Under the pieces are notes generated by a model. It did no database searches and had not been told where the DNA came from. It worked only from the letters and a program-made list of their open reading frames with translations. A stretch of 64,000 nucleotides of DNA from Marseilla massiliensis (GTDB taxonomy: Bacteria > Bacteroidota > Bacteroidia > Bacteroidales > Bacteroidaceae): positions 1 to 64,000 of the forward strand of contig NZ_JACJJL010000010.1 in NCBI RefSeq assembly GCF_016899955.1. Direction: 5' to 3'. Positions 42,559-58,677 of this stretch are shown one piece after another. The position numbers and the translations under genes were made by a program. Each line of letters opens with the position of its first letter. Positions within the stretch are counted from its first letter, which is position 1.

Positions 42559-43967
42559 GCGTTGCTGTTTCATTGAATGAAGCTAAGGGCTTCTGTCGCC
42601 TGGGCTGGCTTACGAGGATAGGGTTTGGCGCAGGAGACCTGGCACAGAACCTGGTGTACCAGACCATTTCCATATATTTGCTGATATACTACACCAATGT
42701 CTACGGCCTTGACCCGTCGGCAGCGGCGTTCATGTTTCTCGTAGTGAGGGTGGTCGACCTCGTGTGGGACCCTTTAGTGGGAACATTTGTCGACAAGCAC
42801 TCGCCGCGCTTCGGCAAGTACCGCTCATACCTTCTCTTTGCCGAAGTGCCGCTGTCGGGCTTCGCCATCATGTGCTTCTGGAACGGATACAGCGGTTCGC
42901 TGCTGTATGCCTATGTCACTTACGTGGGGCTGTCGATGCTATACACTCTGATAAACGTGCCTTACGGTGCCCTGAATGCCTCGCTCACTCGTGACACCAA
43001 CGAGATAACCATACTCACATCGGTGAGGATGTTGCTGGCAAACACCGGCGGACTGGCTGTGGCCTATGGCATCCCGGTGCTCTTGGCCAAGCTGTCGCCC
43101 GACGGGAAGATGAACACCGCTGCCTCGTCGGACGCATGGCTGACGACAATGACTATTTACGCTGTGGCAGGTTTGGCGCTTATGCTCTTCTGTTTCAGCC
43201 AGACGCGGGAGCGTGTGGTGATGGGCGACGACGAGACTGCCGACGTGAGGCTCAGTGACCTCTGGACGGAGTTCTTCCGCAACAGGCCGCTGCGCATACT
43301 GGCCTTCTTCTTCGTGACGGCGTTTGCCATGATGGCCGTGGGCAACTCGGCAGGCTCTTACTACATGATATATAACATACATGCCGATGCCGGGCAGGTG
43401 GCCAACTTCATGGCTCTGGGGTCTGTGCCTGCATTCATATTCATGCCAATGGTTCCGGCCATCAAGCGGAAGGTTGGCAAGCGGGCCATGTTCAGCATCT
43501 TCCTTTCCGTTGCCATTGTGGGCATGGTGCTGCTGTATGTCATCTCGGTAGTACCGGCGCTGCGGGCCAATATATGGATGGTTTATGCCGCTCAGTTCGT
43601 GAAGTCAACTGGCGTGATTGTGGCCACGGGCTACATGTGGGCGTTGGTTCCAGAGGTCATCTCGTATGGCGAATATGTAAACGGCAAGCGGATATCTGGC
43701 ATAGTGAACGCTCTGACGGGCATATTCTACAAAGCCGGAATGGCCCTGGGTGGTGTGATACCAGGCATGGTGCTGGCCTTTGTGGGCTTCGACAAGGGTA
43801 GCGAGAGCGTACAGTCGCCGCTGGCTGAACAGGGCATCCTGTGGCTTGTGGCTGTCATACCGGCGGCTTTGCTCGTTGTCGCCCTGATGATAATATCGCG
43901 TTACGAACTCACCGACGAGCGTATCGACGAGATTAACCGTGTGATTGAGCGTAGGCGCAATGTTTGA
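42555..43967 (+). CDS. GPH-family sugar:cation symporter (MFS fold)
   Basis: 470 residues with about 12 hydrophobic segments, in the inner membrane. The family signature of glycoside-pentoside-hexuronide symporters is visible: GFGAGDLAQNLVYQTISIYLLIYYTNVYGLD at the start, RVVDLVWDPLVGTFVDKHSPRFGKYRSYLL (about 58-88, the cation and sugar region), and VPYGALNASLTRDTNEITILTSVRM (about 136-160). XynB/XylP-type relatives import xylosides or glucuronides, which fits the end of the xylan locus. The start overlaps the GDSL stop by 4 bp (ATGA), indicating translational coupling. The gene is intact. Confidence 0.9.
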   Translation: MSVAVSLNEAKGFCRLGWLTRIGFGAGDLAQNLVYQTISIYLLIYYTNVYGLDPSAAAFMFLVVRVVDLVWDPLVGTFVDKHSPRFGKYRSYLLFAEVPLSGFAIMCFWNGYSGSLLYAYVTYVGLSMLYTLINVPYGALNASLTRDTNEITILTSVRMLLANTGGLAVAYGIPVLLAKLSPDGKMNTAASSDAWLTTMTIYAVAGLALMLFCFSQTRERVVMGDDETADVRLSDLWTEFFRNRPLRILAFFFVTAFAMMAVGNSAGSYYMIYNIHADAGQVANFMALGSVPAFIFMPMVPAIKRKVGKRAMFSIFLSVAIVGMVLLYVISVVPALRANIWMVYAAQFVKSTGVIVATGYMWALVPEVISYGEYVNGKRISGIVNALTGIFYKAGMALGGVIPGMVLAFVGFDKGSESVQSPLAEQGILWLVAVIPAALLVVALMIISRYELTDERIDEINRVIERRRNV

Positions 43968-44572
43968 TTTGTGTTGCCATCATGTTGGTGTGGGGCTTGC
44001 AGCGGTGTTGCGGCATGTGTGTCGCGTGGCTATGGCCGCCATTGCCAGGCAATGCCTTTGGCAAGGAGGGAGGGGCTGTCCGCACGGAGACAAGGTTAAA
44101 ATAGCTTGACGGCAATGGGCTACTTAGGTTAAGGCGTGCGCCGTCTGGTGGTGCCTGTTGCCTAGTTAGGGTGGTTGGATATGTAGGTTTGTGGCCGCTG
44201 CAGGTTTAATGACACCGACAGGCAGCCCAGGGCTGGCGAGCAGACTGCTCTTGCCACGTTGCAGAAGTGGTATGATTGTGGCGTTGACGATGCCGCCCGC
44301 CATGTAGGCCAGGGCACGGGCATTGTCGACTGTTGGCTTTTATTGCGGTCCGTTGGACCGTGGTGGGCACAATGGAATCTGTTGGCAGGCAGCTTGCTGT
44401 GGTGATGCGTCCGGCAGTTGGCGATTCCAATGGCGAGTTACTGCATAGCTTCTTGCGGGTTCGCATCCACATCTCATACTGTTCGGACAGCACTGTCATT
44501 CCCCTTGTTCGCATCCATTTCACAAATGTTGTCTACCTTTCGCAAGTCGCATTGTGCCTTACATAAAATAGA
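43968..44572. other. Gene-free region between symporter and hairpin
   Basis: About 600 bp with no supported gene. A CATTGCC-A-GGCAATG hairpin near 44040 may end the symporter transcript. Composition begins to fall from GC-rich to AT-richer at about 44.5 kb, which probably marks the left border zone of the defence island. Confidence 0.4.
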
Positions 44573-44612
44573 TAATCCCGAAAACCCTCTTTCTACAGGC
44601 TTTTCGGGATTA
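44573..44612. terminator. 12-bp stem hairpin at island border
   Basis: Perfect 12-nt arms (TAATCCCGAAAA at 44573-44584, complement at 44601-44612) with a 16-nt loop. It lies downstream, on the minus strand, of both the tRNA-like remnant and the BREX operon, and could terminate either. Such CCCGAAA hairpins are common behind tRNA genes in this phylum. Confidence 0.6.
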
Positions 44613-44619
44613 CGATGTG

Positions 44620-44709
44620 GTACCACCAGAAATCGAACTATTCGTTCAAGTGGCTGAATATCTTTGATTTATGAATCAGCAAGTAGTGTAATCTCCCGCT
44701 ATTGCTCCA
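44620..44709 (-). other. tRNA-like remnant, possible attachment site
   Basis: On the minus strand a GTGGAGC...GTACCAC acceptor-like pairing (6 of 7, including a wobble) encloses a GTTCGATT T-loop-like string and a central stem with CAT in its loop. The D and T stems do not pair properly, so this is not a working tRNA by eye. It is followed by a hairpin typical of tRNA 3' flanks and lies at the island border, where tRNA genes often serve as integration sites. Weak call. Confidence 0.22.
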
Positions 44710-44825
44710 CCGGATTGTTGCAGCGTTCTGCGACAGATTGCGTGGAGGTTTCCTTTATTGATTACAAATATACAGCTTTCTTTTGAAAGTCAGGCATGTA
44801 ATCATGAAAATTTCTCCACCTTGGT

Positions 44826-46214
44826 TCAAAATCCTTGTTGGACTTCCCAATAGCCTCCTTTATTGGGGCCGACATGTTTTATCATCCCTTTTTCTTGGAG
44901 TGAAGCCAACCGACGTTTTACGCTGCTTTCATGTATGCCTAAGCGACTTACCAATTCTTTTCTTTGTATATAAGGATTCTCTTTAATTAGTTCAAGAATG
45001 ACGTTTTCTTGCTTTTGCTGGCCGGTTTCTGGTCGGTTTCTGGTCTTTTCTGGGTCGTTCTTTTGGGTCGTTTCTGGGTCGTATTGGGTCGTAACCCTTT
45101 CCGGATACTCGAACTTGAATGTAGTCCAAATCCCTGAAGCATCGTAGCGGAACTCCGGCGTGGAGAAACCGCCATTCTTACATGCCGTGATAATGCGCTC
45201 AATACCGCGTCCCCATGCCTCAATCTCACCTGCACGGAAGAACGTATTGGCAATATCCGGGTTGTAAGGCATACTTCGATGTGAGGACAATAAGGTTTCC
45301 ACAGTCCAACCTTCGGGCAATACTCCACCGTTTATTATCTCCACTTTGTTCTCATATACACGGATTTGGATTGGGGAAGGCTCCGCATAGTCTTTGTTGA
45401 TACAGGCATTCAATAGTGCCTCACGCAGAGCCTCACGGGGCATAGGCAATGTTTCTATCCGCTGGATACCTTCGTAGGTGATGATGGCTTTCATGTATTT
45501 GGTACACAGCAAGTCCATCAGTTTCACGATTTGTTGGAACAGATTACCATGCACTTCGTCCTGATACACCAAATCCATGCCTTCACGGAAGAAGCCGATC
45601 TTTACAAACGCTCCGGTCACATACTTTTCCGGGTCGGGATGGAACAGCAAGGCGGCAGCACGTTTCAGGTAACTGCCCTCATAAAGCCGAAGTTTTTCTA
45701 GCAATCCGTGATTGTCATCCATCAAGTCCGCTTCCTCCATGCGTCCGCTCCTTTTAGCATACTTGCGGAACAAGTCAAACGTAGCGTTGTCCAAGTCCTC
45801 CGCTTTCAGATAAGGCACAGGCACACCGTCCCAAGTCTTTCCCTGTTTGCGAAGCATAAAGCGGTCGAGTGCCGCCCCTTTCAGTTCCTGATTGGTCGCA
45901 CCGCTCCGTTGGTAATACTTGCCCCGGAAACTGACGGGATAAGGATAAGCCTCCGTCATGATTTCCAGATATTGCTTTCCGTTTTTTTCTTTCAGGTTGA
46001 CATCCACTAAGATACCCATCATGTCACGCACCTTGTTCGGAATGTCCTCCATCAGTTTCTTGGCATCCTGCACACCGCACACCTCGCCATTGTCCTTTAT
46101 ACCCACATAAAGGATACCGCCTTGTGCATTGGCAAAGCCACAAATCCATTTCTGGTATTCGTCACGCCAAGATTCTTTGAATTCTATGTTTTGGGATTCA
46201 ATGCCGTTATTCAT
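44826..46214 (-). CDS. AlbA_2 (Schlafen-like) ATP-binding regulator protein, BREX-linked
   Basis: 462 residues. The N-terminal AlbA_2 domain (about 5-125: SQNIEFKESWRDEYQKWICGFANAQGGILYVGIKDNGEVCGV) is followed by the usual mixed region. An HATPase-like C-terminal part comes next (LREALLNACINKDYAEPSPIQIRVYENKVEIINGG, then ANTFFRAGEIEAWGRGIERI). A repetitive polar linker (about 370-400) and a winged-helix end (RKELVSRLGIHESSVKRRLASLQEKGMI) complete it. Such proteins are called putative transcriptional regulators; close relatives also occur in defence islands. It is the last gene of the BREX operon, 29 bp after brxL. Accessory defence or regulatory role inferred from position. Confidence 0.78.
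   Translation of the reverse strand: MNNGIESQNIEFKESWRDEYQKWICGFANAQGGILYVGIKDNGEVCGVQDAKKLMEDIPNKVRDMMGILVDVNLKEKNGKQYLEIMTEAYPYPVSFRGKYYQRSGATNQELKGAALDRFMLRKQGKTWDGVPVPYLKAEDLDNATFDLFRKYAKRSGRMEEADLMDDNHGLLEKLRLYEGSYLKRAAALLFHPDPEKYVTGAFVKIGFFREGMDLVYQDEVHGNLFQQIVKLMDLLCTKYMKAIITYEGIQRIETLPMPREALREALLNACINKDYAEPSPIQIRVYENKVEIINGGVLPEGWTVETLLSSHRSMPYNPDIANTFFRAGEIEAWGRGIERIITACKNGGFSTPEFRYDASGIWTTFKFEYPERVTTQYDPETTQKNDPEKTRNRPETGQQKQENVILELIKENPYIQRKELVSRLGIHESSVKRRLASLQEKGMIKHVGPNKGGYWEVQQGF
45019..45104 (-). repeat. Short tandem repeats coding the AlbA_2 protein linker
   Basis: About seven imperfect copies of a 10-12 nt unit (GGTCGTTTCTG, plus strand) run through 45019-45104. They encode a DPETTQKNDPEKTRNRPETG-type linker between the ATPase-like and winged-helix parts. 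Unit lengths vary between copies, so slippage could change frame or linker length. Confidence 0.6.
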
Positions 46215-46243
46215 AAACTTGTAAGATATATGAAATCATTAAC

Positions 46244-47731
46244 CTAAAATAGCTCATTTTCTTCCATCCCTTGTTTGTTTGAACTTATATTCAAAAGTTC
46301 ATTTTTAATCCAAAAGTTGGGCATTGTAGTTTTAAACTCAGGGTCAATATAATGGCATTGCTCTTTAATAATTCCCCTACGATATATTGCAGGTTGTAAA
46401 CAATATCGATCAAACTCGTCCATATCCACTTTGGATGAATTAGTCCAATGAGGAAAGAGCAACTTCATATATCCAACTGCTATTCGCTTGACCGCATTGA
46501 AATCGCGGGTATCCGCATTCTTGTCATATCCAACTATTTGGTCAAAAACGATACCATAAATATTTTGAGTGCGGAGAGCATGAAGAATTTCAGAGAAATA
46601 TTCCACATTAATAGTCCACCCGGAGAATATCATCCCTTTGTGAATGCGTGGTAAATGCCACCCCTCTATGAAACAATGGAAACGGTCAAGCAATGCAGAC
46701 TCACGGAAATTTTGTGGCAAAGAATCAAAATAACGGAAGTTGAGTGGTCGCTTTCTCTCATTTAAAGGGATGTTTCCCATTAACATCAAGCCACATTCGG
46801 ATGTGAATTCGTTATTGTCTATTGTGGTTTTACCAGATTCGAGATATGATTTTAAGGCAGCTTGAATCTCTGCAGGTTCTTGAAAAACAATGGTCTGAAT
46901 TTCATCGAACGCAGTAAAATCATGATTTTTCATAATGCCATTTTGCTGTTTTTGCTTGTCATAAAACAACTTGGCACGAGTTACCTTACCTCCGCTAACC
47001 AACCAACCATATTTGGATAGATTGCCAAAGACATAACTCTTTCCTGTTCCTTTGGGAGCAAGCTCAATTACATTTAGACGAGGCTCTAAGAAAATGAGCA
47101 GTCTTGTAAGGAACTCTATTTTTTCTGTTTGCGATTGAAAACCTTCGGCATCATACTCCATAGCAGAAAGCAATAAGTCAATCCATTCTTTAGTAGTAAA
47201 AGCCTCTCTTGCATTTCTGAAATAATCTATATCAACTGACTTGTATGGTTTGAAGGGTTTGTAGTCAGTCATTTCAACATGATTCTTTTTCCCGTCATCA
47301 TCGGGTAAAAGAGCTAATTTTATAATACCCCATTTTTCTCCGTCAACAAGTTCTCCCATATGGGCTTTATATACATACTCTGGAATCTGACCTTCGTTTT
47401 GTTTGATACCCATGTCTGGTATCGAAAAGCGGCGGATACCTTTTACAAGGTCTATATATACTATAAAACGTGTCAGAAGGGTTAGTTCTTCTCTACAATC
47501 CAATCGATCTTTAACCGTAGATTGTTCAGTAGGAATAACAGAGTCCAGAAATTCTGTCAGTTTGAGCCGATTAACAGAACCATCAGGGTTTATATATCGT
47601 TTGAGCAGAAAGTCTTTAACAAATGAAGGTAAATTTCTTCCTGCAAAAAGGCTACCTGTAGAAGTAGGATCTTTGTATATAGTCATTGCGGCAAATTGCT
47701 CGCGAATTTTATCTGATAAGGATTCGTTCAT
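46244..47731 (-). CDS. brxL: BREX protein BrxL (short Lon-like AAA+ form)
   Basis: A 495-residue AAA+ protein of the BrxL family. The N-terminal region (about 1-215) includes RFSIPDMGIKQNEGQIPEYVYKAHMGELVDGEKWGIIKL. The ATPase follows: Walker A ELAPKGTGKSYVFGNLSKYGWLVSGG at about 224-248, Walker B FTAFDEIQTIVF at about 273-284, and a GLMLMGNIPLNERKRPLNFRYFDSLP segment. The Lon-type C-terminal domain of the long (~680 aa) BrxL proteins is not seen, so this is the short form. BrxL is a DNA-binding hexameric ATPase needed for phage exclusion in studied BREX systems. It is 11 bp after pglZ in the operon. Confidence 0.85.
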   Translation of the reverse strand: MNESLSDKIREQFAAMTIYKDPTSTGSLFAGRNLPSFVKDFLLKRYINPDGSVNRLKLTEFLDSVIPTEQSTVKDRLDCREELTLLTRFIVYIDLVKGIRRFSIPDMGIKQNEGQIPEYVYKAHMGELVDGEKWGIIKLALLPDDDGKKNHVEMTDYKPFKPYKSVDIDYFRNAREAFTTKEWIDLLLSAMEYDAEGFQSQTEKIEFLTRLLIFLEPRLNVIELAPKGTGKSYVFGNLSKYGWLVSGGKVTRAKLFYDKQKQQNGIMKNHDFTAFDEIQTIVFQEPAEIQAALKSYLESGKTTIDNNEFTSECGLMLMGNIPLNERKRPLNFRYFDSLPQNFRESALLDRFHCFIEGWHLPRIHKGMIFSGWTINVEYFSEILHALRTQNIYGIVFDQIVGYDKNADTRDFNAVKRIAVGYMKLLFPHWTNSSKVDMDEFDRYCLQPAIYRRGIIKEQCHYIDPEFKTTMPNFWIKNELLNISSNKQGMEENELF

Positions 47732-47742
47732 TGTTGTAATAT

Positions 47743-50175
47743 TTATAAATCGCCAAATAAATCATCTTCGACAGCACCCGTCGAAATCTTGATATTAAAT
47801 GTTCCGAAAATGTCGTTGTTGATACGCACAACAGCCCTTGTAGCAGTATCAACCAAGTTCAGACGTTCACTTTCAAATTTGTCGCCACCTAAATTTAACA
47901 GATGATATATTACACCGTTATATTCAAGCGTTGGGACATCTACTGAGGCAAGTCCCTTAATAGTAAATTTAAGATTAGGTTGCCTGCCATCTATCTCATC
48001 ATTGTCAATAGTAACTGAATAGGTGTTTGCGTTTTTATGGGAAGAAACAATAATGATTGGCACTAACACTTCTTCAGGAGAACACCCCCCATGTGCTCCA
48101 TGCCCCATGTTTACCTTGTCTGTTAATGATTGGTGAGTTAAGGAACATATAGTTCTCTTATCATCAAGAATAATATATTTGTTGTCAGACACGTAATTTC
48201 CACCAACAATATCAGCCAATCTGCCTTCATGGTTAGGGTTAAGTCCTGCCAATTTAAGGCCGTTAGAATGTTGTGCAAGGTAAGTAATACCATGATCAGA
48301 AACAAAAGCAATTTTCTTTCCTGTATATTTATCAAGCACTTGGGTAATTGCTTTTTCCAAAATTCTCATTTCACCAATGATATATTGAGGATATTTTTTC
48401 GCAGAATGGGCAAAGCTATCCAAGTCACCTATCCTTTCAAGAGGACAATTGTCTGGAAGGAGAGATTGCAGAATTGGTTTATTGATAGCAGTGATAGTTG
48501 GCAAATCTGCTACAGCGATGTGTATCTCGTTAAGATACACATGCTCTTTCTCAAACTTGTCTATTATGTTGCGGATGAATGGTATCCAATCTACGCCAAG
48601 TCCGTCTATCCAATAGAGTATATCAATATCTGAACGATTGTGTAATATCGTCTTTACAGTTCTAAAATTGTTATACCAATTCAGGAATGATGTAGAGTTA
48701 GCATTTTTCTCAGACATGATATCAGATACACGTTCATTTATGGTATCTGATATTTTTGATATGCGGTAACAGTCGAAGTATTCTAGTATCCATTGATTAG
48801 CTGCCTCTAAGTAGTTTAGGTTGAGGGGTTGCAGATACGAATAGAAATCTGGGAAGATGCTCTTTATATCGTTAATACTGACATTCCCTTGAGCGACCCA
48901 GCGTATGGCAAGCTGTAATTCTTCATCTGTCAATGGGGTTAGAAGCCTAGTGGCAAGATAATATCCTCCTTGTTCGGGTGCTATTGCGATGGATGTAAGT
49001 TTTGCTTTCAATTTGGTTCTCGCCATGTCAGGGATTTGCACACCTTTCTCAGCAGCTAATTTCATAGCAGCTAAACGCTCGGAGATAAACGTTTCTTTGT
49101 TTGGCTCATCAAATATTAGCGTAGCAATATGAGAGAACAATTCTGATTTGCTAAGGTTGGTACATTGAGAGACAGCACGATAGATGTATCCTGTTTTATC
49201 AGCAATCTTACGGAAATAGATAGACAATAGCCAACGGTCAAAATCTGTTTCGCAATCAAACCATGATTTTATAAAATCAATGCCATCTTGCAGGGTAAAT
49301 GTATCAAGATGTTCTTTTACGAACTCGTCAAAGTTGAACGTGTTCACATCAATCTTTGCCGCCAATTGTTCCCAATAATGCATTTCTTCATTACAGGGTT
49401 CTTCAGTTACACCAAAATCAATATGCAATCCGTTGACAAGAAATTGGTAAGCATTTTTGCACTCTGTATATGTGAAGGCGTTGTCCGGTTGCGCAAAATG
49501 AGTATTTGCAAAAATGTTCGGTGAACTGCTAATGATTGTTTGTTTTATTTTACCTCCTTTTTCCCATAACTTAAGCCATTCGTACAAGGTCTTGACATAC
49601 GTGTACTTGTCGGACAGTCCTGAAACGCCATAAATAGTTCCATTAGTTACAACCAAATTATATGTGCCTTTGTCAATTTCAGACTTAAATTCCCAAACAA
49701 AAGTCGAATTGTCGTTCATAAATCTGCCCATTTTCTTTTGCATGCCGACTATGGGTATGTATATACGGACATGCTCTTCTTGGGCATCCTCTGGGGCTTG
49801 AGAAGCGCGTATAGTAGTGATAAGAGCATCAAATTCCTTGCATTCCTCGTTATCATAGAAGCGAGCCATCTCAGAAAACGGATAGATGACAAAATCGTTA
49901 ATAGGAATTTTCTTTGTAAAGGCACGTATTTCACGAGACAATTCGGTATATGATAGGAAATCATCTGGTGACTCTATGTCAATCATTGTATCAATCGAAT
50001 GCTTGTAAATACCAGTCGGTCTATTTACAATAAATTCGTTGAAGTCAGAAAAATTATCAAATAACACAAACCTGACAGGATACCTGTTGTAATGGGAAGC
50101 ATTGGCACCTGTCCAATGCTTATCCTCCTGAATATACGCAAAAAGCGCATCAAGTGAGTTGAACGACTTATACAT
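47743..50175 (-). CDS. pglZ: BREX phosphatase-superfamily protein PglZ (type 4)
   Basis: 810 residues. The N-terminal ~500 residues are helical and lack simple motifs. The C-terminal part carries the alkaline-phosphatase-superfamily core: ILYWIDGLGVDWIPF (metal-site Asp), LPTITAINKP, GKKIAFVSDHGITYLA (metal-binding DHG), and MGHGAHGGCSPEEVLVPIIIV (second metal ligands), followed by a small beta domain. This pattern and the place between brxC and brxL identify PglZ, the common marker of BREX systems. The length fits the type 4 branch. The stop-to-start gap to brxC is only 4 bp. The biochemical role of PglZ is still unsettled in the field. Confidence 0.87.
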   Translation of the reverse strand: MYKSFNSLDALFAYIQEDKHWTGANASHYNRYPVRFVLFDNFSDFNEFIVNRPTGIYKHSIDTMIDIESPDDFLSYTELSREIRAFTKKIPINDFVIYPFSEMARFYDNEECKEFDALITTIRASQAPEDAQEEHVRIYIPIVGMQKKMGRFMNDNSTFVWEFKSEIDKGTYNLVVTNGTIYGVSGLSDKYTYVKTLYEWLKLWEKGGKIKQTIISSSPNIFANTHFAQPDNAFTYTECKNAYQFLVNGLHIDFGVTEEPCNEEMHYWEQLAAKIDVNTFNFDEFVKEHLDTFTLQDGIDFIKSWFDCETDFDRWLLSIYFRKIADKTGYIYRAVSQCTNLSKSELFSHIATLIFDEPNKETFISERLAAMKLAAEKGVQIPDMARTKLKAKLTSIAIAPEQGGYYLATRLLTPLTDEELQLAIRWVAQGNVSINDIKSIFPDFYSYLQPLNLNYLEAANQWILEYFDCYRISKISDTINERVSDIMSEKNANSTSFLNWYNNFRTVKTILHNRSDIDILYWIDGLGVDWIPFIRNIIDKFEKEHVYLNEIHIAVADLPTITAINKPILQSLLPDNCPLERIGDLDSFAHSAKKYPQYIIGEMRILEKAITQVLDKYTGKKIAFVSDHGITYLAQHSNGLKLAGLNPNHEGRLADIVGGNYVSDNKYIILDDKRTICSLTHQSLTDKVNMGHGAHGGCSPEEVLVPIIIVSSHKNANTYSVTIDNDEIDGRQPNLKFTIKGLASVDVPTLEYNGVIYHLLNLGGDKFESERLNLVDTATRAVVRINNDIFGTFNIKISTGAVEDDLFGDL

Positions 50176-50179
50176 AGGC

Positions 50180-53100
50180 CTACCCTTGATTATCTGATGA
50201 TTCTAGAATTTTGTCTATAACAAACTCGTAACCCAAATCGATTACCTTGTCAAGAAGTGAACGGAGTACATCCGCAGAGTCAATGGAATCAATATATTGT
50301 CTTGCAGAAACTTTCTTGCGGGCTATGTGCTCTGGATTTCCTTTTAGTTCTTGAATAGCTGCATTTTTGGCGTTTTTCGCTTCTTCTTCAAGGCGACGAT
50401 GTTCTTCTTCAAGTTTACGCTCGCGTTCTTCCCTTTCTAAACGATGACGCTCCTCTTCTTCACGGCGGCGTTCTGCCTCGATTTTGTCGTTCTCGGCAAT
50501 ACGCCAGTCTTTCAATGCGACAATTACTTCTTCTTCAGACCAATAACCAACGGTCGATTCCAGATGTTTTTTCACAAAGTCATAGGCAGAATCTACTTCA
50601 AAGTTTTGTAAGCCAATACCGGGTTGGCTAAGCATGAAGTTGTTGAATCCATTTTGAAAATTGCCCGGCTTAGCCATGATGTCAGGAATATCCGCACGAT
50701 AAGTTTCTATTAAGTTGAGAGTGTCTTTAATAAGTGCAGGATTCTTAATGTCTTTCTCCCCACAGATAGCAACGATATTATCAAACAGACGTTTGATGTC
50801 TTCGTTAAGCAATATTGCTGGGTGAGAGTTGACAAACTCCTCATCCATGTATTTAAGTGCCCACAGCGGATAGCCCTTTTCTTCGAGTAAAGAACCTGTT
50901 ATGGCAAAGCGGGCATCTTTAAGGCTAGAAATATCACTGTATCCTTTCAACTTGTCAAGTTTGAAAGTCTTGACAAGTGATTTGCAAAGTTTACCTTCTT
51001 CGGGAGTCTGAAACTTGAAACTCAACTTGTTTGAGTTCTTCCCTTTTTCCCAAACGCTAAACAATTCGCCAATCACTTCTACCAAATTATTTTTGTCAAG
51101 AGGCTTTCCTAAGGTGTCAAAAATTTTGTTTTCCCAATTGCGCATGGCAAAAGCTACCATCGCAGCAGAAGCATAGTTACCTGAAAGTCCGTATGGCGGT
51201 TTGCGCAAATCGTCAAATTTCTCAATGAAGTTAAACAACAATGATTTATCCGCATATTTAATTTTGTTTTGTATAAAATCATAAACCATTTTGAAAGGAT
51301 GATTTTCTGGCATATCCACACGCCATTCAAGATTTTCATCAATTGCATCTTGGATGAGATATTGGACAGGTTTCATTTGCCCTGCAACTTCGGTAAGTTC
51401 CGACTTGCTGGTGCTGAAAATAAAGGTGCGAATAATCTCTTTCGACACTTGGGGCTTCCAGAAAGTATTAGGGGCTTTTGACCTAATTGTTTCGATGGCA
51501 TCAGGTCCTTGTGGAAAGATGATAGGAGCAACCGTGTCATTGAGACATGGCGAAAGGCGTTTCACCGAAATTGGAATTTGCTGTCCGTTAATGTAGACAG
51601 TGGCATTGCCGCGTGAGGCATTTTGCAACCATTCTTTAATCATATCAGCAGCATGGTCGCGATGCACATTTACTTGATCAAGAAAACCATGAGATTGGGC
51701 AGAAGTATAGTTTGCCATATACTCAATGAAACGAGCATATTGTTTGTCGCCAAAAGCAGTATCAAACACGATGAATATAATATCCCGCAAATCTTTATCG
51801 TCCGTCACACCGCTGTTTGAAGCGAGGTCGGCAAATTCGCGAAGATGTGCTATTTCTGCATTGTTCTTGGAAAAGAGCAATGCCAAATACAGGTCGCTCG
51901 GCCGAGACTCTTTCTTTGCCCGCTTAATTCTGTCTTTCAGCAACGCATCGTTCGATGCTTCAGAATAGAAATGATATGTATAAGGACGAATAATTTTCTG
52001 AACAATTTTTTTAGTAAAGTACGATGCGGCTGTGTCGCCAAAATTAAGAATGCTCGAAATGAAACGGAATTTGTCAGTGTCATTGGCAAGTGAGTGTTTC
52101 AGTTCTTCAATTTCGTGTGAGGGCAGTGCGGTAAATTGAACCGAGAATATGCCGCCCGGTGTTCGTTGAATGATACCTTGGTCATTAAACCAGTTGAGCA
52201 CTTCTTTGACCTCACTCTCGTATTGAGTGCCGAGAAATAGATTTATAATGTTGTCTTCTGTCGGCGTGACAAGGTCATTATTGTTCTCGGCCGATATATT
52301 ATTAAAGGCGTTAAGCAACAAGATGCCCTTAAATATGGCGTATGCTGCTTTCCCGTGATCCTCCACATGCTGACGATAGGTATTGAAACGTTCGGTAACA
52401 GCGCCGTAATTTAACACATCGTCTTGGAACACTTTCAGGACAAAGTCCCAAAGATAGTCAGCAGTAACTGTTTCGCGATTAGCAAAAGCGGTTTCACTTT
52501 CTAGGAACTGTTCCATTGCCTCGTTTTGACCGATAAACTCAAACACGCTTCTGCTCGATGAACCGACAACAGTTGCGTAGTGGGTGGCAAGGTTTGCTGT
52601 TGCCGGATGTATCGGGAAGAGATTGAGCAAATCACCCCGAGTTTCTTTGGGGTCATTTGAAGATGCTGTGTACAAATCGAGCAAATTATTGTGGACTGAA
52701 TAAAAGAAATTGGTCATCGATTGATGACGTTCTTGATCTATAATCTCAAATTTGCGCGACATGATTTTGAATGCCGACACCGATTCCATGTTGTATTTCA
52801 TACGGTGGTATCGTCCATCGGTTTGCTTCGTTTCCTCGTTACCCAGCTTATTGAAAGCCGAAGGATGGGAAATTAAGAATAGGAAACTGTCGTTTTCTTC
52901 GTTGGCAAATTTCTGGGCAATGGTCTGAAGAGCTTTAAGCACAGGGATGCCGATAGAATCTTCCATCACATCAGTAAACTCGTCCCAGATGATGAGCAAG
53001 CCTTTATAGTCGGTTTCGGTGCGTAGTTTTTCCTGAACCTCAATAAGCCAGGCTCCCACATTTTCTTGATTCAGCAAAATGGTCATATTGGCTTTCCGCA

Positions 53101-53731
53101 AAGCTGATTTTGCCTTTTGGAAAGTCGCCATGTCCTTGCCTCTGAGCTTTTGTATTAACTTTTCACGAGTGGATGCAATGGAACGCAGCTCGGCAAAATT
53201 ATCAATCAGATAATCCCAAATTACCTGATTGTCTTGAATGTGCTGAACGAGGGCATCGAAATCGGTATCGACGGCGATTTCAAGATCCACCTCGTTGAGT
53301 GCTTTAACAACGGCTGTTTGAAGCACCAATGGTAGGTCGGAAACGTGCGACATATCGCACAATCCCTCAATCTTGACGGGCAACAGACGTTTAACTTTAC
53401 GTAGGCTATAAATCTGGCTTCGAATAAGGTCGAATTTATCAGCTCCATATTCATAATCCACCCATTCTTTGATATTGGTTAACGTATCGCAGAGCAAGTG
53501 GGAAATAACGGCCACAGCATGACTCTTACCTGTACCATATGTGCCGTTTATCCAAAACGATTTATGAGCATCAATATCATTACCACGCACTGAGCGAAGT
53601 ACTGTACGTAAAACCGTATTAAATTGGCCGTTTGGGATGAATGAAGCCCATTGATTCCCTTTTTCTTCTTCAATGCTATAAGCAGCCCTACCGCTGCGCT
53701 TGCGTATGATGTCGTTATATTTCGTTGCCAT
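50180..53731 (-). CDS. brxC: BREX P-loop ATPase BrxC (type 4)
   Basis: 1,183 residues. The N-terminal part carries a Walker A at residues 63-70 in WINGTYGTGKSHAVAVISHLL and a Walker B-like DYKGLLIIWDEFTDVMED at about 237-254, with LFLISHPSAFNKLG following (sensor-like). The remaining two thirds are helical. Near the C-terminus (about 1090-1140) lies a charged coiled coil of Glu/Arg repeats (AERRREEEERHRLEREERER). Size, P-loop position and location between brxP and pglZ match BrxC. It probably forms a large ATPase scaffold of the defence complex. It ends in TAG, so TAG works as a normal stop here. Confidence 0.87.
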   Translation of the reverse strand: MATKYNDIIRKRSGRAAYSIEEEKGNQWASFIPNGQFNTVLRTVLRSVRGNDIDAHKSFWINGTYGTGKSHAVAVISHLLCDTLTNIKEWVDYEYGADKFDLIRSQIYSLRKVKRLLPVKIEGLCDMSHVSDLPLVLQTAVVKALNEVDLEIAVDTDFDALVQHIQDNQVIWDYLIDNFAELRSIASTREKLIQKLRGKDMATFQKAKSALRKANMTILLNQENVGAWLIEVQEKLRTETDYKGLLIIWDEFTDVMEDSIGIPVLKALQTIAQKFANEENDSFLFLISHPSAFNKLGNEETKQTDGRYHRMKYNMESVSAFKIMSRKFEIIDQERHQSMTNFFYSVHNNLLDLYTASSNDPKETRGDLLNLFPIHPATANLATHYATVVGSSSRSVFEFIGQNEAMEQFLESETAFANRETVTADYLWDFVLKVFQDDVLNYGAVTERFNTYRQHVEDHGKAAYAIFKGILLLNAFNNISAENNNDLVTPTEDNIINLFLGTQYESEVKEVLNWFNDQGIIQRTPGGIFSVQFTALPSHEIEELKHSLANDTDKFRFISSILNFGDTAASYFTKKIVQKIIRPYTYHFYSEASNDALLKDRIKRAKKESRPSDLYLALLFSKNNAEIAHLREFADLASNSGVTDDKDLRDIIFIVFDTAFGDKQYARFIEYMANYTSAQSHGFLDQVNVHRDHAADMIKEWLQNASRGNATVYINGQQIPISVKRLSPCLNDTVAPIIFPQGPDAIETIRSKAPNTFWKPQVSKEIIRTFIFSTSKSELTEVAGQMKPVQYLIQDAIDENLEWRVDMPENHPFKMVYDFIQNKIKYADKSLLFNFIEKFDDLRKPPYGLSGNYASAAMVAFAMRNWENKIFDTLGKPLDKNNLVEVIGELFSVWEKGKNSNKLSFKFQTPEEGKLCKSLVKTFKLDKLKGYSDISSLKDARFAITGSLLEEKGYPLWALKYMDEEFVNSHPAILLNEDIKRLFDNIVAICGEKDIKNPALIKDTLNLIETYRADIPDIMAKPGNFQNGFNNFMLSQPGIGLQNFEVDSAYDFVKKHLESTVGYWSEEEVIVALKDWRIAENDKIEAERRREEEERHRLEREERERKLEEEHRRLEEEAKNAKNAAIQELKGNPEHIARKKVSARQYIDSIDSADVLRSLLDKVIDLGYEFVIDKILESSDNQG

Positions 53732-53744
53732 TGCCGAGTGAATG

Positions 53745-56243
53745 TTATTTTGTTAATAGTTCAAGAACGGAAATCGCATTTAAGTCTTTGCGCAAAGTGA
53801 TGTGGTCTAACCCCATATTTAGTTCCGCCAATAAGACCCTATTGGAATCTGAAGAAAGAGAGCGAAGTTTTTTCAGAAGGACATTTCTTGGTATGCCAAA
53901 TTCCAAGGGTGCGCTTTTATAGCCTTCAGTGTTGTAAAGGTCTGAAACTCTAAATTCTGTGCTATCGTTTTTTTCAGCATATAGATATAATGAATATGCA
54001 AGCCCTTCTAGGCTTAAATCATCGTAGCTTCGTCTAATACGTTTTTTTTCAATCACTTCACCTTGGGAAAAATCCTCACCTATCGGAGAACTTTTAAACA
54101 TGTCGATTAATGCTCCAACAGCATTGTTTAATGTAGTTAGAGATGAAACACTTTCAGATGTGGTAATTTTATCTGCTATAGTTCTCTTGTCAAATATATC
54201 ACCAACAGAAATTTGATTAATAAATCTATTTACGATAAAAGAAGAATAAGAAAGATTTATCCAGATTACTTCCCAAAATAATGAGGGGGTATTTCTATAA
54301 ATTTCTTGCATCAATTTTCCAAACTCCGTAGGGTTGTTTTTGGTATCAAGTAATCCTGCGTCTTTAGTCCATGATTTAAATGAATCGAACATCGCAGTTC
54401 CTAATAAGGTGCTTGACCAAAAATTATCTGGGTCACTCACATATTCATCGACCCATTCATCGCGAAGACCAAATGTTTTATAACCTTTAATTGATAATGT
54501 AGAATCCATTTTTATTTTACCTGATATTTTTCTTAAACAATCAGCTGCAATGCATCCTTTTTCGTGAAAATTAATGCACTTTAAGCAATGTACACATTGG
54601 GAGCCTATTGATACCTGTGGAACAATTTTCAAAGCCCCAGTAGGACACTGAACCTCACAAACCTCACATTGAATACAGTATGCAGCTTTTTGGGCAATTC
54701 GCATTATATTGTTAGCAAAGCGAGAATCATTTGAGTTGAACTTAATATCAATATGTGTCAATGTTTTTGTTCCACTAAATGGGATTATGTCTTTGCCAAT
54801 TTGAATAGCTCCTGAAAAAGAATTTTTTGAATACCCCATAGTGTATGATCCGAGGACTTTTAGCCATTCAAAAAACATATTCGAAGTGGCTGATATTTTG
54901 AGCCTCGTAACATGGTTGTTACTACTTATTAAGACCTTTTCCTTATTCCGCAAAACAGGACTTCCTATAGCCGATATGTGCCAACGCTTTGTTTTAATAA
55001 AAGTTTCTGGGTCTTTAATGCCTGATGCTTCAACCCAATATTGCAGTTTATCCAAGAATGGTTTTCTAACATTGGGATACAGTCTGCTTACTAGAAAATC
55101 AGACCATTCAGAACCAAAAGGGCAAATTACACAGCCAACACGAGAAAAGCCATATCGATATGATTGGTTTATAGGAAGATTGTGGATAAACATATATAAG
55201 AATATCTCAACAGTATTCCATTGAAGAATGGGGTGGGCATTGTAGGTATAAATATGTTTGCCTTTTCCAATCCTATTATAACTACTTCTACGTGTAGATT
55301 CTTCTGCTCGGACGCCATCGAAAGTAAGTACACGTGCCTGTTTGTTACCATCCATTTTGAGTGAACGGTATAGGGGGGCTGTTTTCATTACCGAACAACA
55401 CCAGCGATGAGTGTCACTGGGAGTACCAATTTTATCCCAATAGTTGAGAACTGATTCGTGATTACGTGTGGTGGTGAACTTCAATGCGGGAAAACGATTG
55501 CCATAATAACGTTTCACTTCTTCATAAAGCTCCAATGAAGGAGGTAATTCGTAACCAGTATCAGAGTAAATCACTTCAAATGCGGTAGGCGGTATGGCTC
55601 GAGTTACGAGGTCGAGCACTACTTGAGAATCCTTCCCGCCAGAGAAAGACGCAATAAACTTATCAATACGAGTAGACAACAAGACACGCTTGCCTTTTAC
55701 ATTTGCCTCATCAAGGGGCATCACATCAAAGCTGTCGCAATCTTCTTTCACGACAGCCATCTTCTGTTTGGTTTTTTTCTCTACTTTTTGAGCCAAAGCC
55801 TCGAAATCTATATTTTGGTTGGCCATTATGGCATCGTAAGCTTGATTGACGCCTGCATATGCAATGTAGGTGTCACGGATAAACTCCAAGGCTTCGTTTT
55901 CAATGAGAAACATTTGGTCTTTGTTGCGGCGTAGCATTTCCTCTAAATCAACGGGAACTAATGTGGCAGTTTCTTTCCCCTCTTGAAAGACAATGGTAGG
56001 TGCATCGTAAATATTAGCACCTTTGGCTTCAAACATAAGTTCACCACGATAGAAATATTGTTTATTAACAGCCCACATTAGTGGTGCTTCAGCAGGAGGG
56101 TAAATGTATCCTAATTTTTCAAGACCGAGCAAATTAAGTTCTTCAAACCAAACAGGACGTGGAGAAATGCCCAAAGTTTCTTTTGTAACCTTGGAACTCA
56201 GAAGAATGCCCCCTGTCTCTTTATCCCATTCTATCTTATACAT
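53745..56243 (-). CDS. brxP: BREX type 4 PAPS-reductase-like protein BrxP with ferredoxin domain
   Basis: 832 residues. After an N-terminal region (1-190) comes a PAPS-reductase/PP-loop domain: FIASFSGGKDSQVVLDLV (SGGKDS at 201-206, ATP pyrophosphate loop), YSDTGYELP, DTHRWCCSVMKTAP (C282, C283) and FSRVGCVICPFGSEW (C371, C374). These four Cys can hold an Fe-S cluster, as in the DNA-phosphorothioation protein DndC. A second, bacterial-ferredoxin-like module lies at 523-569 (CIQCEVCEVQCP and CVHCLKC..GC) with spacing for two 4Fe-4S clusters. A PAPS-reductase-like gene next to brxC, pglZ and brxL is the defining mark of type 4 BREX. Its start overlaps the regulator by 13 bp. Confidence 0.87.
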   Translation of the reverse strand: MYKIEWDKETGGILLSSKVTKETLGISPRPVWFEELNLLGLEKLGYIYPPAEAPLMWAVNKQYFYRGELMFEAKGANIYDAPTIVFQEGKETATLVPVDLEEMLRRNKDQMFLIENEALEFIRDTYIAYAGVNQAYDAIMANQNIDFEALAQKVEKKTKQKMAVVKEDCDSFDVMPLDEANVKGKRVLLSTRIDKFIASFSGGKDSQVVLDLVTRAIPPTAFEVIYSDTGYELPPSLELYEEVKRYYGNRFPALKFTTTRNHESVLNYWDKIGTPSDTHRWCCSVMKTAPLYRSLKMDGNKQARVLTFDGVRAEESTRRSSYNRIGKGKHIYTYNAHPILQWNTVEIFLYMFIHNLPINQSYRYGFSRVGCVICPFGSEWSDFLVSRLYPNVRKPFLDKLQYWVEASGIKDPETFIKTKRWHISAIGSPVLRNKEKVLISSNNHVTRLKISATSNMFFEWLKVLGSYTMGYSKNSFSGAIQIGKDIIPFSGTKTLTHIDIKFNSNDSRFANNIMRIAQKAAYCIQCEVCEVQCPTGALKIVPQVSIGSQCVHCLKCINFHEKGCIAADCLRKISGKIKMDSTLSIKGYKTFGLRDEWVDEYVSDPDNFWSSTLLGTAMFDSFKSWTKDAGLLDTKNNPTEFGKLMQEIYRNTPSLFWEVIWINLSYSSFIVNRFINQISVGDIFDKRTIADKITTSESVSSLTTLNNAVGALIDMFKSSPIGEDFSQGEVIEKKRIRRSYDDLSLEGLAYSLYLYAEKNDSTEFRVSDLYNTEGYKSAPLEFGIPRNVLLKKLRSLSSDSNRVLLAELNMGLDHITLRKDLNAISVLELLTK

Positions 56244-56455
56244 TGACTGTTTTTTATTTCTGTTTTTACAATTAAATCTCTAACATCAACATTAAGATGT
56301 TCCGCAATTTTTACCAACATTTCTAAGCTAGGTTGATAAGTATTTGTACACCACTTAGATATTGTGGCTTGATCCCTACCTAATTGCTCAGCAAGCCATT
56401 TACTGGTCCTATTTTGTTCTGCAAGTACAGCTTTTATTCTATTGATTTTTTGCAT
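56231..56455 (-). CDS. XRE-family helix-turn-helix regulator of the BREX operon
   Basis: A 74-residue single-domain Cro/CI-type HTH: RIKAVLAEQNRTSKWLAEQLGRDQATISKWCTNTYQPSLEMLVKIAEHLNVDVRDLIV. The HTH is WLAEQLGRDQATISKWCTN (about 20-38). It is the first gene of the operon and its end overlaps the brxP start, so it is translationally coupled. Such small XRE proteins commonly act as autoregulatory controllers of restriction-type systems, delaying or limiting expression. A TAnnTTTG promoter element lies 41 bp upstream. Confidence 0.85.
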   Translation of the reverse strand: MQKINRIKAVLAEQNRTSKWLAEQLGRDQATISKWCTNTYQPSLEMLVKIAEHLNVDVRDLIVKTEIKNSQCIR

Positions 56456-56495
56456 ATACTAATATCTTATGTTGCATGGTTAGCCTTAAATCTTG

Positions 56496-56503
56496 CAAAG
56501 ATA
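56496..56503 (-). promoter_or_regulatory. -7 element of the BREX operon
   Basis: Minus-strand TATCTTTG, followed by C, fits TAnnTTTG and gives a leader of about 35 nt before the XRE start. No good -33 motif is seen. It is the only promoter-like element found upstream of the six-gene operon. Confidence 0.5.
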
Positions 56504-56614: not shown

Positions 56615-56684
56615 AAGCCACAAGCAAATCAGGCAAAGAGTTGCCAGATAAAATAGCATCTGATTATATTTTTGCTTGTGGCTT
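56615..56684. terminator. Terminator between mobilization and BREX operons
   Basis: Perfect 14-nt arms (56615-56628 and 56671-56684, AAGCCACAAGCAAA and complement) around a 42-nt loop. On the minus strand the second arm is followed by TTTCATTTTTTATTTT. It lies 12 bp after the last mob gene and insulates the BREX promoter from it. Confidence 0.8.
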
Positions 56685-56695
56685 ACTGAAATGGA

Positions 56696-57349
56696 CTATC
56701 TTACTTCTGGAGTAACTTTTTTCAGCTTATCCTGCATCAGGCTGTCAGAAACTGCCTTCAACTCCCTGTCATAGCCGTCAGCCTCTTGACGCAACCATTC
56801 GATGGTTTTCTCGTCACGCCGGATATCGAACACATCGTTCAGCCAAAGGATGGCCTTTGCGTCGCATCCTCCCCACGAGCGGATAACGCGGAACTTCAAA
56901 GCATCGTCCGCATACTGCCGTTTGTTCTTCCAAAGCTCGATGTTGCCCCAGACGGATAGGCTGCACACGACACCCATGCCGACCAAAAGAGAAAAGACCT
57001 TGCTTGACCGGATGTCAAAACAGTGGCGGTGGAAATGCTTCTGCGGCTCGTCCGTCCGTTCTTCCGAACTTCGGACAAACATCTCTTTCAAATCACGCAA
57101 CAAGTGCAGAATCTTGTTCGATGCGTGAACCTCCGCCTCCCCGAACTTGGTCAGCATGGCTTTGGTCTGCTGTTGATGCTCCTTTGCGGAACTGTCGAAC
57201 AACTCCTTTATGGGAGTCAAATCCATTGCAGGAGCTTGTTCTCCTGATTGACTGTTACTAACTTTTGGGGTGTTTTCCAATTTGTTATTGATACCCTTTA
57301 AGCCATTCCTGATGTCTTCAAAGAGAGCATAAACTTCATTATTATCCAT
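56696..57349 (-). CDS. Mobilization-operon membrane protein, unknown function
   Basis: 217 residues. The N-terminal half is helical and hydrophilic, with likely coiled coil (IRNGLKGINNKL, HASNKILHLLRDLKEMF). One membrane segment lies at about 122-137 (VFSLLVGMGVVCSLSVWGN), and a charged C-terminal helix follows. No enzyme motif is visible. It starts 2 bp after the relaxase gene and is part of the mobC-relaxase operon. Genes of this kind (sometimes labelled mobilization protein) regularly follow MobP-type relaxases in Bacteroides elements. It may link the relaxosome to the membrane or coupling protein (inferred). Confidence 0.6.
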   Translation of the reverse strand: MDNNEVYALFEDIRNGLKGINNKLENTPKVSNSQSGEQAPAMDLTPIKELFDSSAKEHQQQTKAMLTKFGEAEVHASNKILHLLRDLKEMFVRSSEERTDEPQKHFHRHCFDIRSSKVFSLLVGMGVVCSLSVWGNIELWKNKRQYADDALKFRVIRSWGGCDAKAILWLNDVFDIRRDEKTIEWLRQEADGYDRELKAVSDSLMQDKLKKVTPEVR

Positions 57350-58311: not shown

Positions 58312-58677
58312 CTATAAAAGGATAAGATTAAGCACTTCTTCGATACGCGTGACCAGCACACGGCATTCCAGCCCCACGGTGGCGAAGCCTGCCGCGTTCG
58401 CCTTATGCGCCAGTTGGTTGAGGTTGTTCGCCATGCCGCATAACTGGCGGATGTAACCCGCATGCTCCGGCGTGAGCCGCTCCTTCACCTGCCCGTCCCT
58501 CATGCAGCCGCGCAGGAACTCCCCGGCAGACATGCCCGCACTCCGCGCCTTGCCTTTTAGCGTGTAGTAGTCCGATGTAGCCATCTTCACCGTGAGGCGA
58601 TATTTCAGTTTGTCAGCCGCTCCCTTCTTGGGACGGCCTCCCTTGTTCCTTCTGTCAAATTTCCGTTTCTGTTCCAT
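58312..58677 (-). CDS. mobC: Relaxosome accessory protein MobC
   Basis: 121 residues. A basic N-terminus (RKFDRRNKGGRPKKGAADKLKYRLTVKM) is a ribbon-helix-helix-like DNA-binding start. It is followed by KARSAGMSAGEFLRGCMRDG and the family C-terminal helix pair (IRQLCGMANNLNQLAHKANAAGF). This matches the plasmid mobilization relaxosome MobC family, which melts oriT and helps the relaxase nick. First gene of the mob operon, 3 bp before the relaxase stop-start junction and next to the oriT-like repeats upstream. Confidence 0.88.
   Translation of the reverse strand: MEQKRKFDRRNKGGRPKKGAADKLKYRLTVKMATSDYYTLKGKARSAGMSAGEFLRGCMRDGQVKERLTPEHAGYIRQLCGMANNLNQLAHKANAAGFATVGLECRVLVTRIEEVLNLILL

What the first reader, a model, noticed from the sequence alone, without database searches (positions are those of the whole stretch)
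44826..56503. Compact type 4 BREX defence operon with its own XRE controller and an AlbA_2 protein
The order XRE - brxP (PAPS-reductase-like) - brxC - pglZ - brxL - AlbA_2 on one strand, with gaps of 4-29 bp or overlaps, matches the gene set described for type 4 BREX, one of the rarer BREX types. The operon is AT-richer than the flanking chromosome and carries no methyltransferase gene (PglX), which the better studied types need for self-marking. All genes appear intact, in contrast to the damaged xylan locus beside it.
Basis: partly seen in the sequence, partly recalled or inferred. Interest (0 to 1): 0.85.

Follow-up and report, generated by a model that had tools for sequence, protein, structure and literature searches.

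The report
Mobile sulfur-marking BREX phage defence
This stretch carries a complete, known kind of bacterial anti-virus system (type 4 BREX) that probably marks its own DNA with sulfur instead of methyl groups; most related copies examined carry one extra small gene that looks like a reader of that sulfur mark, and this copy lacks it.

Summary
Six intact same-strand genes (44826-56455) encode XRE, BrxP, BrxC, PglZ, BrxL and a Schlafen-type AlbA_2/HATPase/HTH protein. PglZ scores 779 bits on NCBI's BREX-4 model (cut-off 140), and BrxP, BrxC and BrxL match PADLOC models over most of their length. It is a type 4 BREX. The missing methyltransferase is expected: published work treats type 4 as a phosphorothioation (PT) system. 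Relaxase and integrase genes lie beside it, so it is probably mobile cargo.

Comparison adds one thing. Of 28 operons (window included) with the brxP-brxC interval readable, 19 carry an extra gene, 16 of them there. Its profile matches the solved sulfur-binding domain SBDHga1 (E=2.9e-28), and two sulfur-cavity residues are invariant in 18 of 18; a third is not kept. It is a candidate stand-alone PT reader. The window lacks it; its sister operon in Bacteroides salyersiae (84-93% identical proteins) has it. I found no mention of this gene in what I could read, but the main type 4 paper was not held. The window itself is a new member of a known kind.

The parts
56231..56455 (-). XRE/Cro-type HTH regulator, 74 aa
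   Evidence: HTH_3 PF01381 42.6 bits, cut-off 23; 87% identical homologue at the same place in B. salyersiae L003
53745..56243 (-). BrxP: PAPS-reductase domain with SGGKDS loop, two CxxCxxC clusters, DUF4007/SspB-like C-terminus, 832 aa
   Evidence: PADLOC BrxP 850 bits over 1-830, SspD 62.5 bits; PAPS_reduct 110 bits; DUF4007 and Fer4 below their cut-offs; SGGKDS at 201, CxxCxxC at 523 and 550
50180..53731 (-). BrxC/SspC-like ATPase, 1183 aa
   Evidence: PADLOC BrxC 1003 bits over 5-1081, SspC 47 bits; no Pfam or NCBIfam match; GTYGTGKS at 63, LIIWDEF at 246
47743..50175 (-). PglZ of type 4, 810 aa
   Evidence: NF033445 BREX_PglZ_4 779 bits, cut-off 140; IDGLG 523, DHG 627, GAHGG 693
46244..47731 (-). 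Short BrxL (no C-terminal third), 495 aa
   Evidence: TIGR02688 425 bits, cut-off 329; aligns to 8-459 of the 679-aa BrxL of 8emc
44826..46214 (-). Accessory Schlafen AlbA_2 + HATPase_c_4 + winged HTH protein, 462 aa
   Evidence: PF04326 63 bits, PF13749 66 bits, HTH_24 32 bits; ESQNIEFK at 6 and GIKD at 38, i.e. E6, E11, D41
56496..56503 (-). TATCTTTG box, putative operon promoter
   Evidence: TGTATCTTTGCAA also in the L003 upstream sequence; promoter consensus recalled
56615..56684 (-). Inverted repeat followed by a T-rich stretch, putative terminator between mob genes and BREX operon
   Evidence: AAGCCACAAGCAAA 56684-56671 and TTTGCTTGTGGCTT 56628-56615
56696..57349 (-). Mobilization-associated protein of unknown family, 217 aa
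   Evidence: no Pfam, PADLOC or NCBIfam match; homologues next to MobB-like genes in L057, L058, L061, L072
57352..58308 (-). MobB-type relaxase, 318 aa
   Evidence: PF03432 Relaxase 124 bits; NF041325 123 bits, below its cut-off of 400
58312..58677 (-). MobA/NikA-like protein
   Evidence: PF21983 51 bits, PF05713 38 bits
58870..59397 (-). DUF3408 protein
   Evidence: PF11888 107 bits
61409..62686 (+). Tyrosine integrase 1
   Evidence: PF00589, PF17293, PF13102
62744..64000 (+). Tyrosine integrase 2: frame from TTG 62744, running past the window end (to L010:4025)
   Evidence: PF00589, PF17293, PF13102 on L010:2808-4025

Best explanation
A complete type 4 BREX operon, probably carried as cargo of a mobilizable integrative element. 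BrxP, fed with sulfur by a housekeeping cysteine desulfurase and acting with BrxC, places phosphorothioate marks on host DNA (inferred from homology and published type 4 work). BrxC, PglZ and BrxL block unmarked phage DNA (inferred). XRE likely controls expression (inferred). The Schlafen-type protein is an optional second-line effector, probably an RNase (inferred). Most related operons examined add a stand-alone sulfur-binding-domain protein as a reader of the mark; this copy does without it (presence and absence shown; reader role inferred).
For: Family assignments. Type 4 as PT system in print. Weaker SspB/SspC/SspD similarity of BrxP and BrxC. No Aminotran_5 gene on the window's contig, but a 498-bit one on contig 43, a candidate sulfur donor (that it is a desulfurase was not tested). 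Low dN/dS against the B. salyersiae copy, 0.023-0.061, with dS near saturation. Mob and integrase genes adjacent; clear relaxase matches near BREX-4 in 5 of 31 relatives. SBD gene in 19 of 28 readable operons, matching solved SBDHga1. One of 10 accessory proteins of relatives scanned is DndB.
Against: Nothing here shows PT in this organism's DNA or defence against a phage. Element ends and attachment repeats were not found; the integrases lie about 5 kb from xre on the other strand. The Schlafen-type gene has a different GC and a relative away from BREX. Lack of the SBD gene could mean reduced or altered function.
Confidence: 0.85

Rival explanations
1. The operon marks DNA but no longer restricts: without the SBD reader it is an orphan PT modification system.
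For: The sister operon in B. salyersiae has the SBD gene between brxP and brxC, where the window has 13 bp.
Against: Core genes are open and conserved against B. salyersiae, and 7 other readable operons also lack a full or partial SBD gene, so it is not strictly required.
Confidence: 0.1
2. The Schlafen-type AlbA_2 gene is a separate gene that happens to lie 29 bp downstream of brxL; the BREX unit ends at brxL.
For: GC 47% against 37-42% for brxP, brxC, pglZ and brxL. An 89%-identical block (44617-46199) occurs in G445 with no BREX gene in the 16 kb read. B. salyersiae DNA similarity stops at 46245.
Against: Nine of 31 related loci have a gene similar to this or to the B. salyersiae AlbA_2 protein on the same strand downstream of brxL (phmmer; domains checked in Pfam only for B. 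salyersiae). Such genes are reported near BREX and related loci in at least 1017 taxa.
Confidence: 0.35
3. It is an Ssp-type PT system rather than BREX.
For: BrxP and BrxC show weaker similarity to SspD, SspB and SspC.
Against: PglZ and BrxL are present and above their BREX cut-offs; BrxP and BrxC score more than ten times higher on BREX than on Ssp models.
Confidence: 0.02

Closest known systems
Type 4 BREX (brxP-brxC-pglZ-brxL); gut examples of Yuan et al., Nat Commun 2026 (citation seen in reference lists only; paper not held)
   Same: Same four core genes in the same order, no methyltransferase
   Different: Here with an XRE gene, a Schlafen-type gene and no sulfur-binding-domain gene; no PT data. 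Whether Yuan et al. describe such genes I could not see
Bacteroides salyersiae DSM 18765 BREX-4 operon (L003)
   Same: Same order; proteins 83.6-92.7% identical; XRE and relaxase genes upstream; an AlbA_2/HATPase gene downstream
   Different: Has the 143-aa SBD gene between brxP and brxC; its AlbA_2 protein shows only 30% identity over a 108-residue stretch; relaxase 34% identical
Ssp systems (SspABCD with SspE or SspFGH)
   Same: PAPS-reductase, DUF4007 and ATPase components are related
   Different: Ssp lacks PglZ and BrxL (recalled); no SspE match among the eight proteins scanned
Sulfur-binding domains of SBDHga1 and ScoMcrA
   Same: The extra gene of relatives matches SBDHga1 over most of its length; K and P of the sulfur cavity invariant
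   Different: Stand-alone or with a short N-terminal extension, inside BREX-4 operons; the ScoMcrA H116 position is alanine in 16 of 18; not present in the window

Membership tests
Type 4 BREX | PglZ of the BREX-4 class | tested here: met
   NF033445 779 bits, cut-off 140
Type 4 BREX | BrxP PAPS reductase, often fused to DUF4007 | tested here: met
   PADLOC BrxP 850 bits; PAPS_reduct 110 bits; DUF4007 only 17.9 bits, below its cut-off of 27; second BrxP model 58 bits over 587-793
Type 4 BREX | BrxC ATPase and BrxL | tested here: met
   1003 and 716 bits; TIGR02688 above cut-off
Type 4 BREX | No PglX methyltransferase in the operon | tested here: met
   a PglX-like gene lies on another contig in a second BREX locus
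Type 4 BREX | Cysteine desulfurase in the locus (reported in 56% of taxa) | tested here: not met
   no Aminotran_5 match on the window's contig; candidates on other contigs. Not obligatory according to PMC12839542
Type 4 BREX | Phosphorothioate in host DNA and phage defence | not testable with these tools
   needs mass spectrometry, PT-seq or phage assay
Sulfur-binding domain (extra gene of relatives, not in the window) | Homology to a solved SBD | tested here: met
   8h0l_A SBDHga1 E=2.9e-28 with profile A1, next chain 0.62; three single members E 4.9e-4, 2.3e-9, 6.2e-19, the only chain at E<=0.1 each time
Sulfur-binding domain (extra gene of relatives, not in the window) | Sulfur-cavity residues equivalent to ScoMcrA R/K117 and P165 | tested here: met
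   K28 and P76 invariant in 18 of 18; equivalence read by eye through the 8h0l alignment and PMC6224610 passages
Sulfur-binding domain (extra gene of relatives, not in the window) | Other cavity residues (ScoMcrA H116, Y164, A168) | tested here: not met
   by eye: H116 position is Ala in 16 of 18 and His in 2; Y164 and A168 positions mostly differ. PMC6224610 calls Y164 and A168 less conserved among homologues but H116 similar
Sulfur-binding domain (extra gene of relatives, not in the window) | Fold | tested here: inconclusive
   single-sequence AlphaFold model mean pLDDT 55.8, not searched
Schlafen-family RNase | AlbA_2 domain with two Glu five apart and a downstream Asp | tested here: met
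   E6, E11, D41 against SLFN13 E205, E210, D248 (passages); the Asp is 30 residues on here and 38 there; matched by eye
Schlafen-family RNase | RNase activity | not testable with these tools
   biochemical assay needed
Mobilizable integrative element | Relaxase and integrase genes | tested here: met
Mobilizable integrative element | Defined ends with attachment repeats | tested here: not met
   longest exact repeat 13 bp between 43800-46300 and 56455-76000; only short weak matches to the 44560-44800 tail elsewhere in the genome

The most novel reading that the evidence does not exclude
Type 4 BREX operons of Bacteroidales commonly encode a stand-alone sulfur-binding-domain protein that reads the phosphorothioate mark for the BREX machinery (self-recognition or maintenance of hemi-modified sites). 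The window and B. salyersiae form a natural reader-minus/reader-plus pair of otherwise closely similar operons.
Probability: 0.6. Interest if true: 0.65.

Novelty: new member of a known kind. Interest (0 to 1): 0.48.

Why it matters
The passages I saw do not say how type 4 BREX tells marked from unmarked DNA. Mobilization genes beside this and five other loci suggest how the system spreads among Bacteroidales.

Tried and rejected
Attachment repeats: exact direct repeats between 43800-46300 and 56455-76000 reach at most 13 bp, which I judge to be chance; the tail 44560-44800 has only short weak matches elsewhere in the genome. A tRNA-like look of 44617-44710 was considered and dropped: ARAGORN finds no tRNA in the window and Rfam nothing in 40000-64000 at E<=1.

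Empty site: a DNA search of 60 genus genomes found the neighbouring MFS transporter gene outside this genome only at 64-75% identity, so no empty site could be read.

AlphaFold model of the B. salyersiae SBD protein alone: mean pLDDT 55.8, too poor to search.

SBD gene elsewhere: no match in contig positions 1-76000 nor in the window's genome at E<=1; the same profile matches in 51 of 398 genomes of the genus sample, so the search works.

Pfam and PADLOC do not recognise the SBD gene: scanning the 18 members of A1 gave only stray matches, best E 0.08 (GET4, one member) and 0.0073 (Cas8b, one member).

Considered and rejected: an Ssp system; an operon broken by mutation (the five BREX proteins have nearly the same lengths as in L003).

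Full report
What is there. Profile searches give XRE (HTH_3), BrxP, BrxC, PglZ, BrxL and a protein with SLFN_AlbA_2, HATPase_c_4 and a winged HTH. The most telling single result is NCBI's BREX-4 PglZ model: 779 bits against a cut-off of 140. BrxC has no Pfam or NCBIfam match but scores 1003 bits on a PADLOC BrxC model. BrxL is the short form: it aligns to residues 8-459 of the 679-residue solved BrxL. Motifs are in place: SGGKDS and two CxxCxxC clusters in BrxP, Walker-type motifs in BrxC and BrxL, and IDGLG, DHG and GAHGG in PglZ (meaning of the motifs recalled).

Why there is no methyltransferase. Passages of PMC12839542 describe type 4 as replacing methylation with DNA phosphorothioation, with BrxC, the PAPS reductase and DUF4007 related to SspC, SspD and SspB. 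[quoted passage not shown] The window's BrxP and BrxC show the same cross-similarity to Ssp models. The primary paper (Yuan et al., Nat Commun 2026;17:1717, citation seen) is not held, so I cite it only through others. No Aminotran_5 gene lies on the window's contig; the genome has seven matches over the cut-off on other contigs, the best 498 bits. PMC12839542 reports a desulfurase in 56% of taxa and suggests housekeeping substitutes.

Surroundings. Upstream and on the same strand lie a 217-aa protein, a MobB-type relaxase, a MobA/NikA-like protein and a DUF3408 protein; further on, on the plus strand, two small ORFs (one checked as HTH_17) and two tyrosine integrases. An inverted repeat with a T-rich stretch follows the mob genes, and a TATCTTTG box precedes xre, with a similar box in B. 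salyersiae. I infer that the operon is cargo of a mobilizable element. Its ends were not found.

Relatives. PglZ relatives occur in 26 of 398 genomes of the genus sample and 6 of 393 of the order sample, the window's genome included in both. In a phylum sample, 93 of 395 have some match to the BREX-4 PglZ model but only 3 pass its cut-off, again including this genome. A scan of genome contigs gave two loci: a 5.7-kb MAG contig with an identical PglZ (L002) and Bacteroides salyersiae (L003). Against B. salyersiae the five BREX proteins are 83.6-92.7% identical with dN/dS 0.023-0.061; dS is 1.4-2.6, near saturation, so these ratios are rough.

The extra gene. I read the neighbourhoods of 32 loci: the window, L003 and L052-L081; L002 was left out as too short. 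In four (L054, L062, L068, L081) contig ends hide the brxP-brxC interval. Of the other 28, 19 carry an additional gene, 16 between brxP and brxC and 3 after brxL (the latter with an N-terminal extension); one (L076) has a remnant; eight have none: window, L052, L053, L055, L065, L078, L079, L080 (the contig of L080 ends 0.3 kb past brxL, so a gene there could be missed). No match was found in the archaeal BREX-4 plasmid locus L082 or in the more distant L105-L107. A profile of 18 members (A1) finds one convincing chain in the PDB, 8h0l SBDHga1, E=2.9e-28. Three single members tested each find only that chain at E<=0.1 (4.9e-4, 2.3e-9, 6.2e-19). Of the nine invariant columns, K28 and P76 line up by eye with ScoMcrA R117 (lysine in most homologues) and P165; R117A or G and P165N abolish PT-DNA binding (passages of PMC6224610). 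Against this, the H116 position is alanine in 16 of 18 members and the Y164 and A168 positions mostly differ. Pfam and PADLOC gave only stray matches.

How specific is the association? In the genus sample the profile matches 51 of 398 genomes: 19 of 26 with BREX-4 and 32 of 372 without (Fisher p=1.3e-13). I take the two samples, both of 398 genomes, to be the same. The profile was built from BREX-linked copies, which inflates the figure. One of the 19 (G548) has its match on another contig, and one (G426) is the remnant. The domain is therefore not exclusive to BREX-4; nine of the other matches lie in reading frames over 600 aa. One of 10 accessory proteins of relatives that I scanned is DndB, the second gene after brxL in L070.

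Evolution. On a tree of BrxC, PglZ and BrxL, window and B. salyersiae are sisters with support 1.000, and the SBD-plus loci fall in several clades. The next relatives L052, L053 and L055 lack the gene, so it was either lost more than once or gained by B. salyersiae; I did not decide between these.

The AlbA_2 gene. [quoted passage not shown] In my loci, genes similar to the window's or the B. salyersiae AlbA_2 protein lie downstream of brxL on the same strand in 9 of 31 relatives (L003, L057, L058, L061, L065, L070, L071, L072, L079; phmmer), some at only 56-86 bits; domains were checked in Pfam only for L003. Against membership in this case: GC 47%, and an 89%-identical block (44617-46199) in G445 with no BREX gene in the 16 kb read, where the gene is split into two ORFs and preceded by a 42-aa ORF that by eye resembles an integrase piece. 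I treat it as an exchangeable accessory.

Is the SBD gene known? The terms SBD and sulfur-binding do not occur in the main text of PMC12839542. [quoted passage not shown] BREX does not occur in the main text of PMC10853773. A search for sulfur-binding domain + BREX + phosphorothioa listed one paper, on SspE. This is weak evidence of novelty, because the main type 4 paper and all supplements were out of reach.

Verdict. The window holds a complete member of a known kind. The added value is the comparison: a candidate PT-reader gene that most of the relatives read have and this operon lacks.

Noticed in passing
G000 contig 47, L104:18-13222: A second BREX-like locus in the same genome: PglX-like gene in two ORFs, a SIR2/ThsA-like 936-aa protein, an AlbA-like 533-aa protein, PglZ 854 aa, long BrxL 697 aa.
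   Followed up: partly
L057, L059, L060 downstream of brxL: Accessory proteins combining an RNA polymerase alpha-CTD match and a sigma-70 region 4 match below its cut-off.
   Followed up: no
L065:2181-5760: Downstream of brxL: a HATPase_c_3 protein and a reverse transcriptase-like protein, then an AlbA_2-like gene.
   Followed up: no
L073, L075, L076, L079 downstream of brxL: Several accessory proteins share an N-terminal stretch like EELELILKLIGKYNLPLSPILEYAVKE but have different C-terminal parts, in two loci the SBD; it may be a docking tag (by eye).
   Followed up: no
L076:15856-16101: Truncated SBD-gene remnant near a BREX-4 operon.
   Followed up: no
L010:4051-16001 (contig positions beyond the window): Further mobile-looking genes beyond the window: paired small ORFs and long ORFs, possibly a second adjacent element (no family search).
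   Followed up: no
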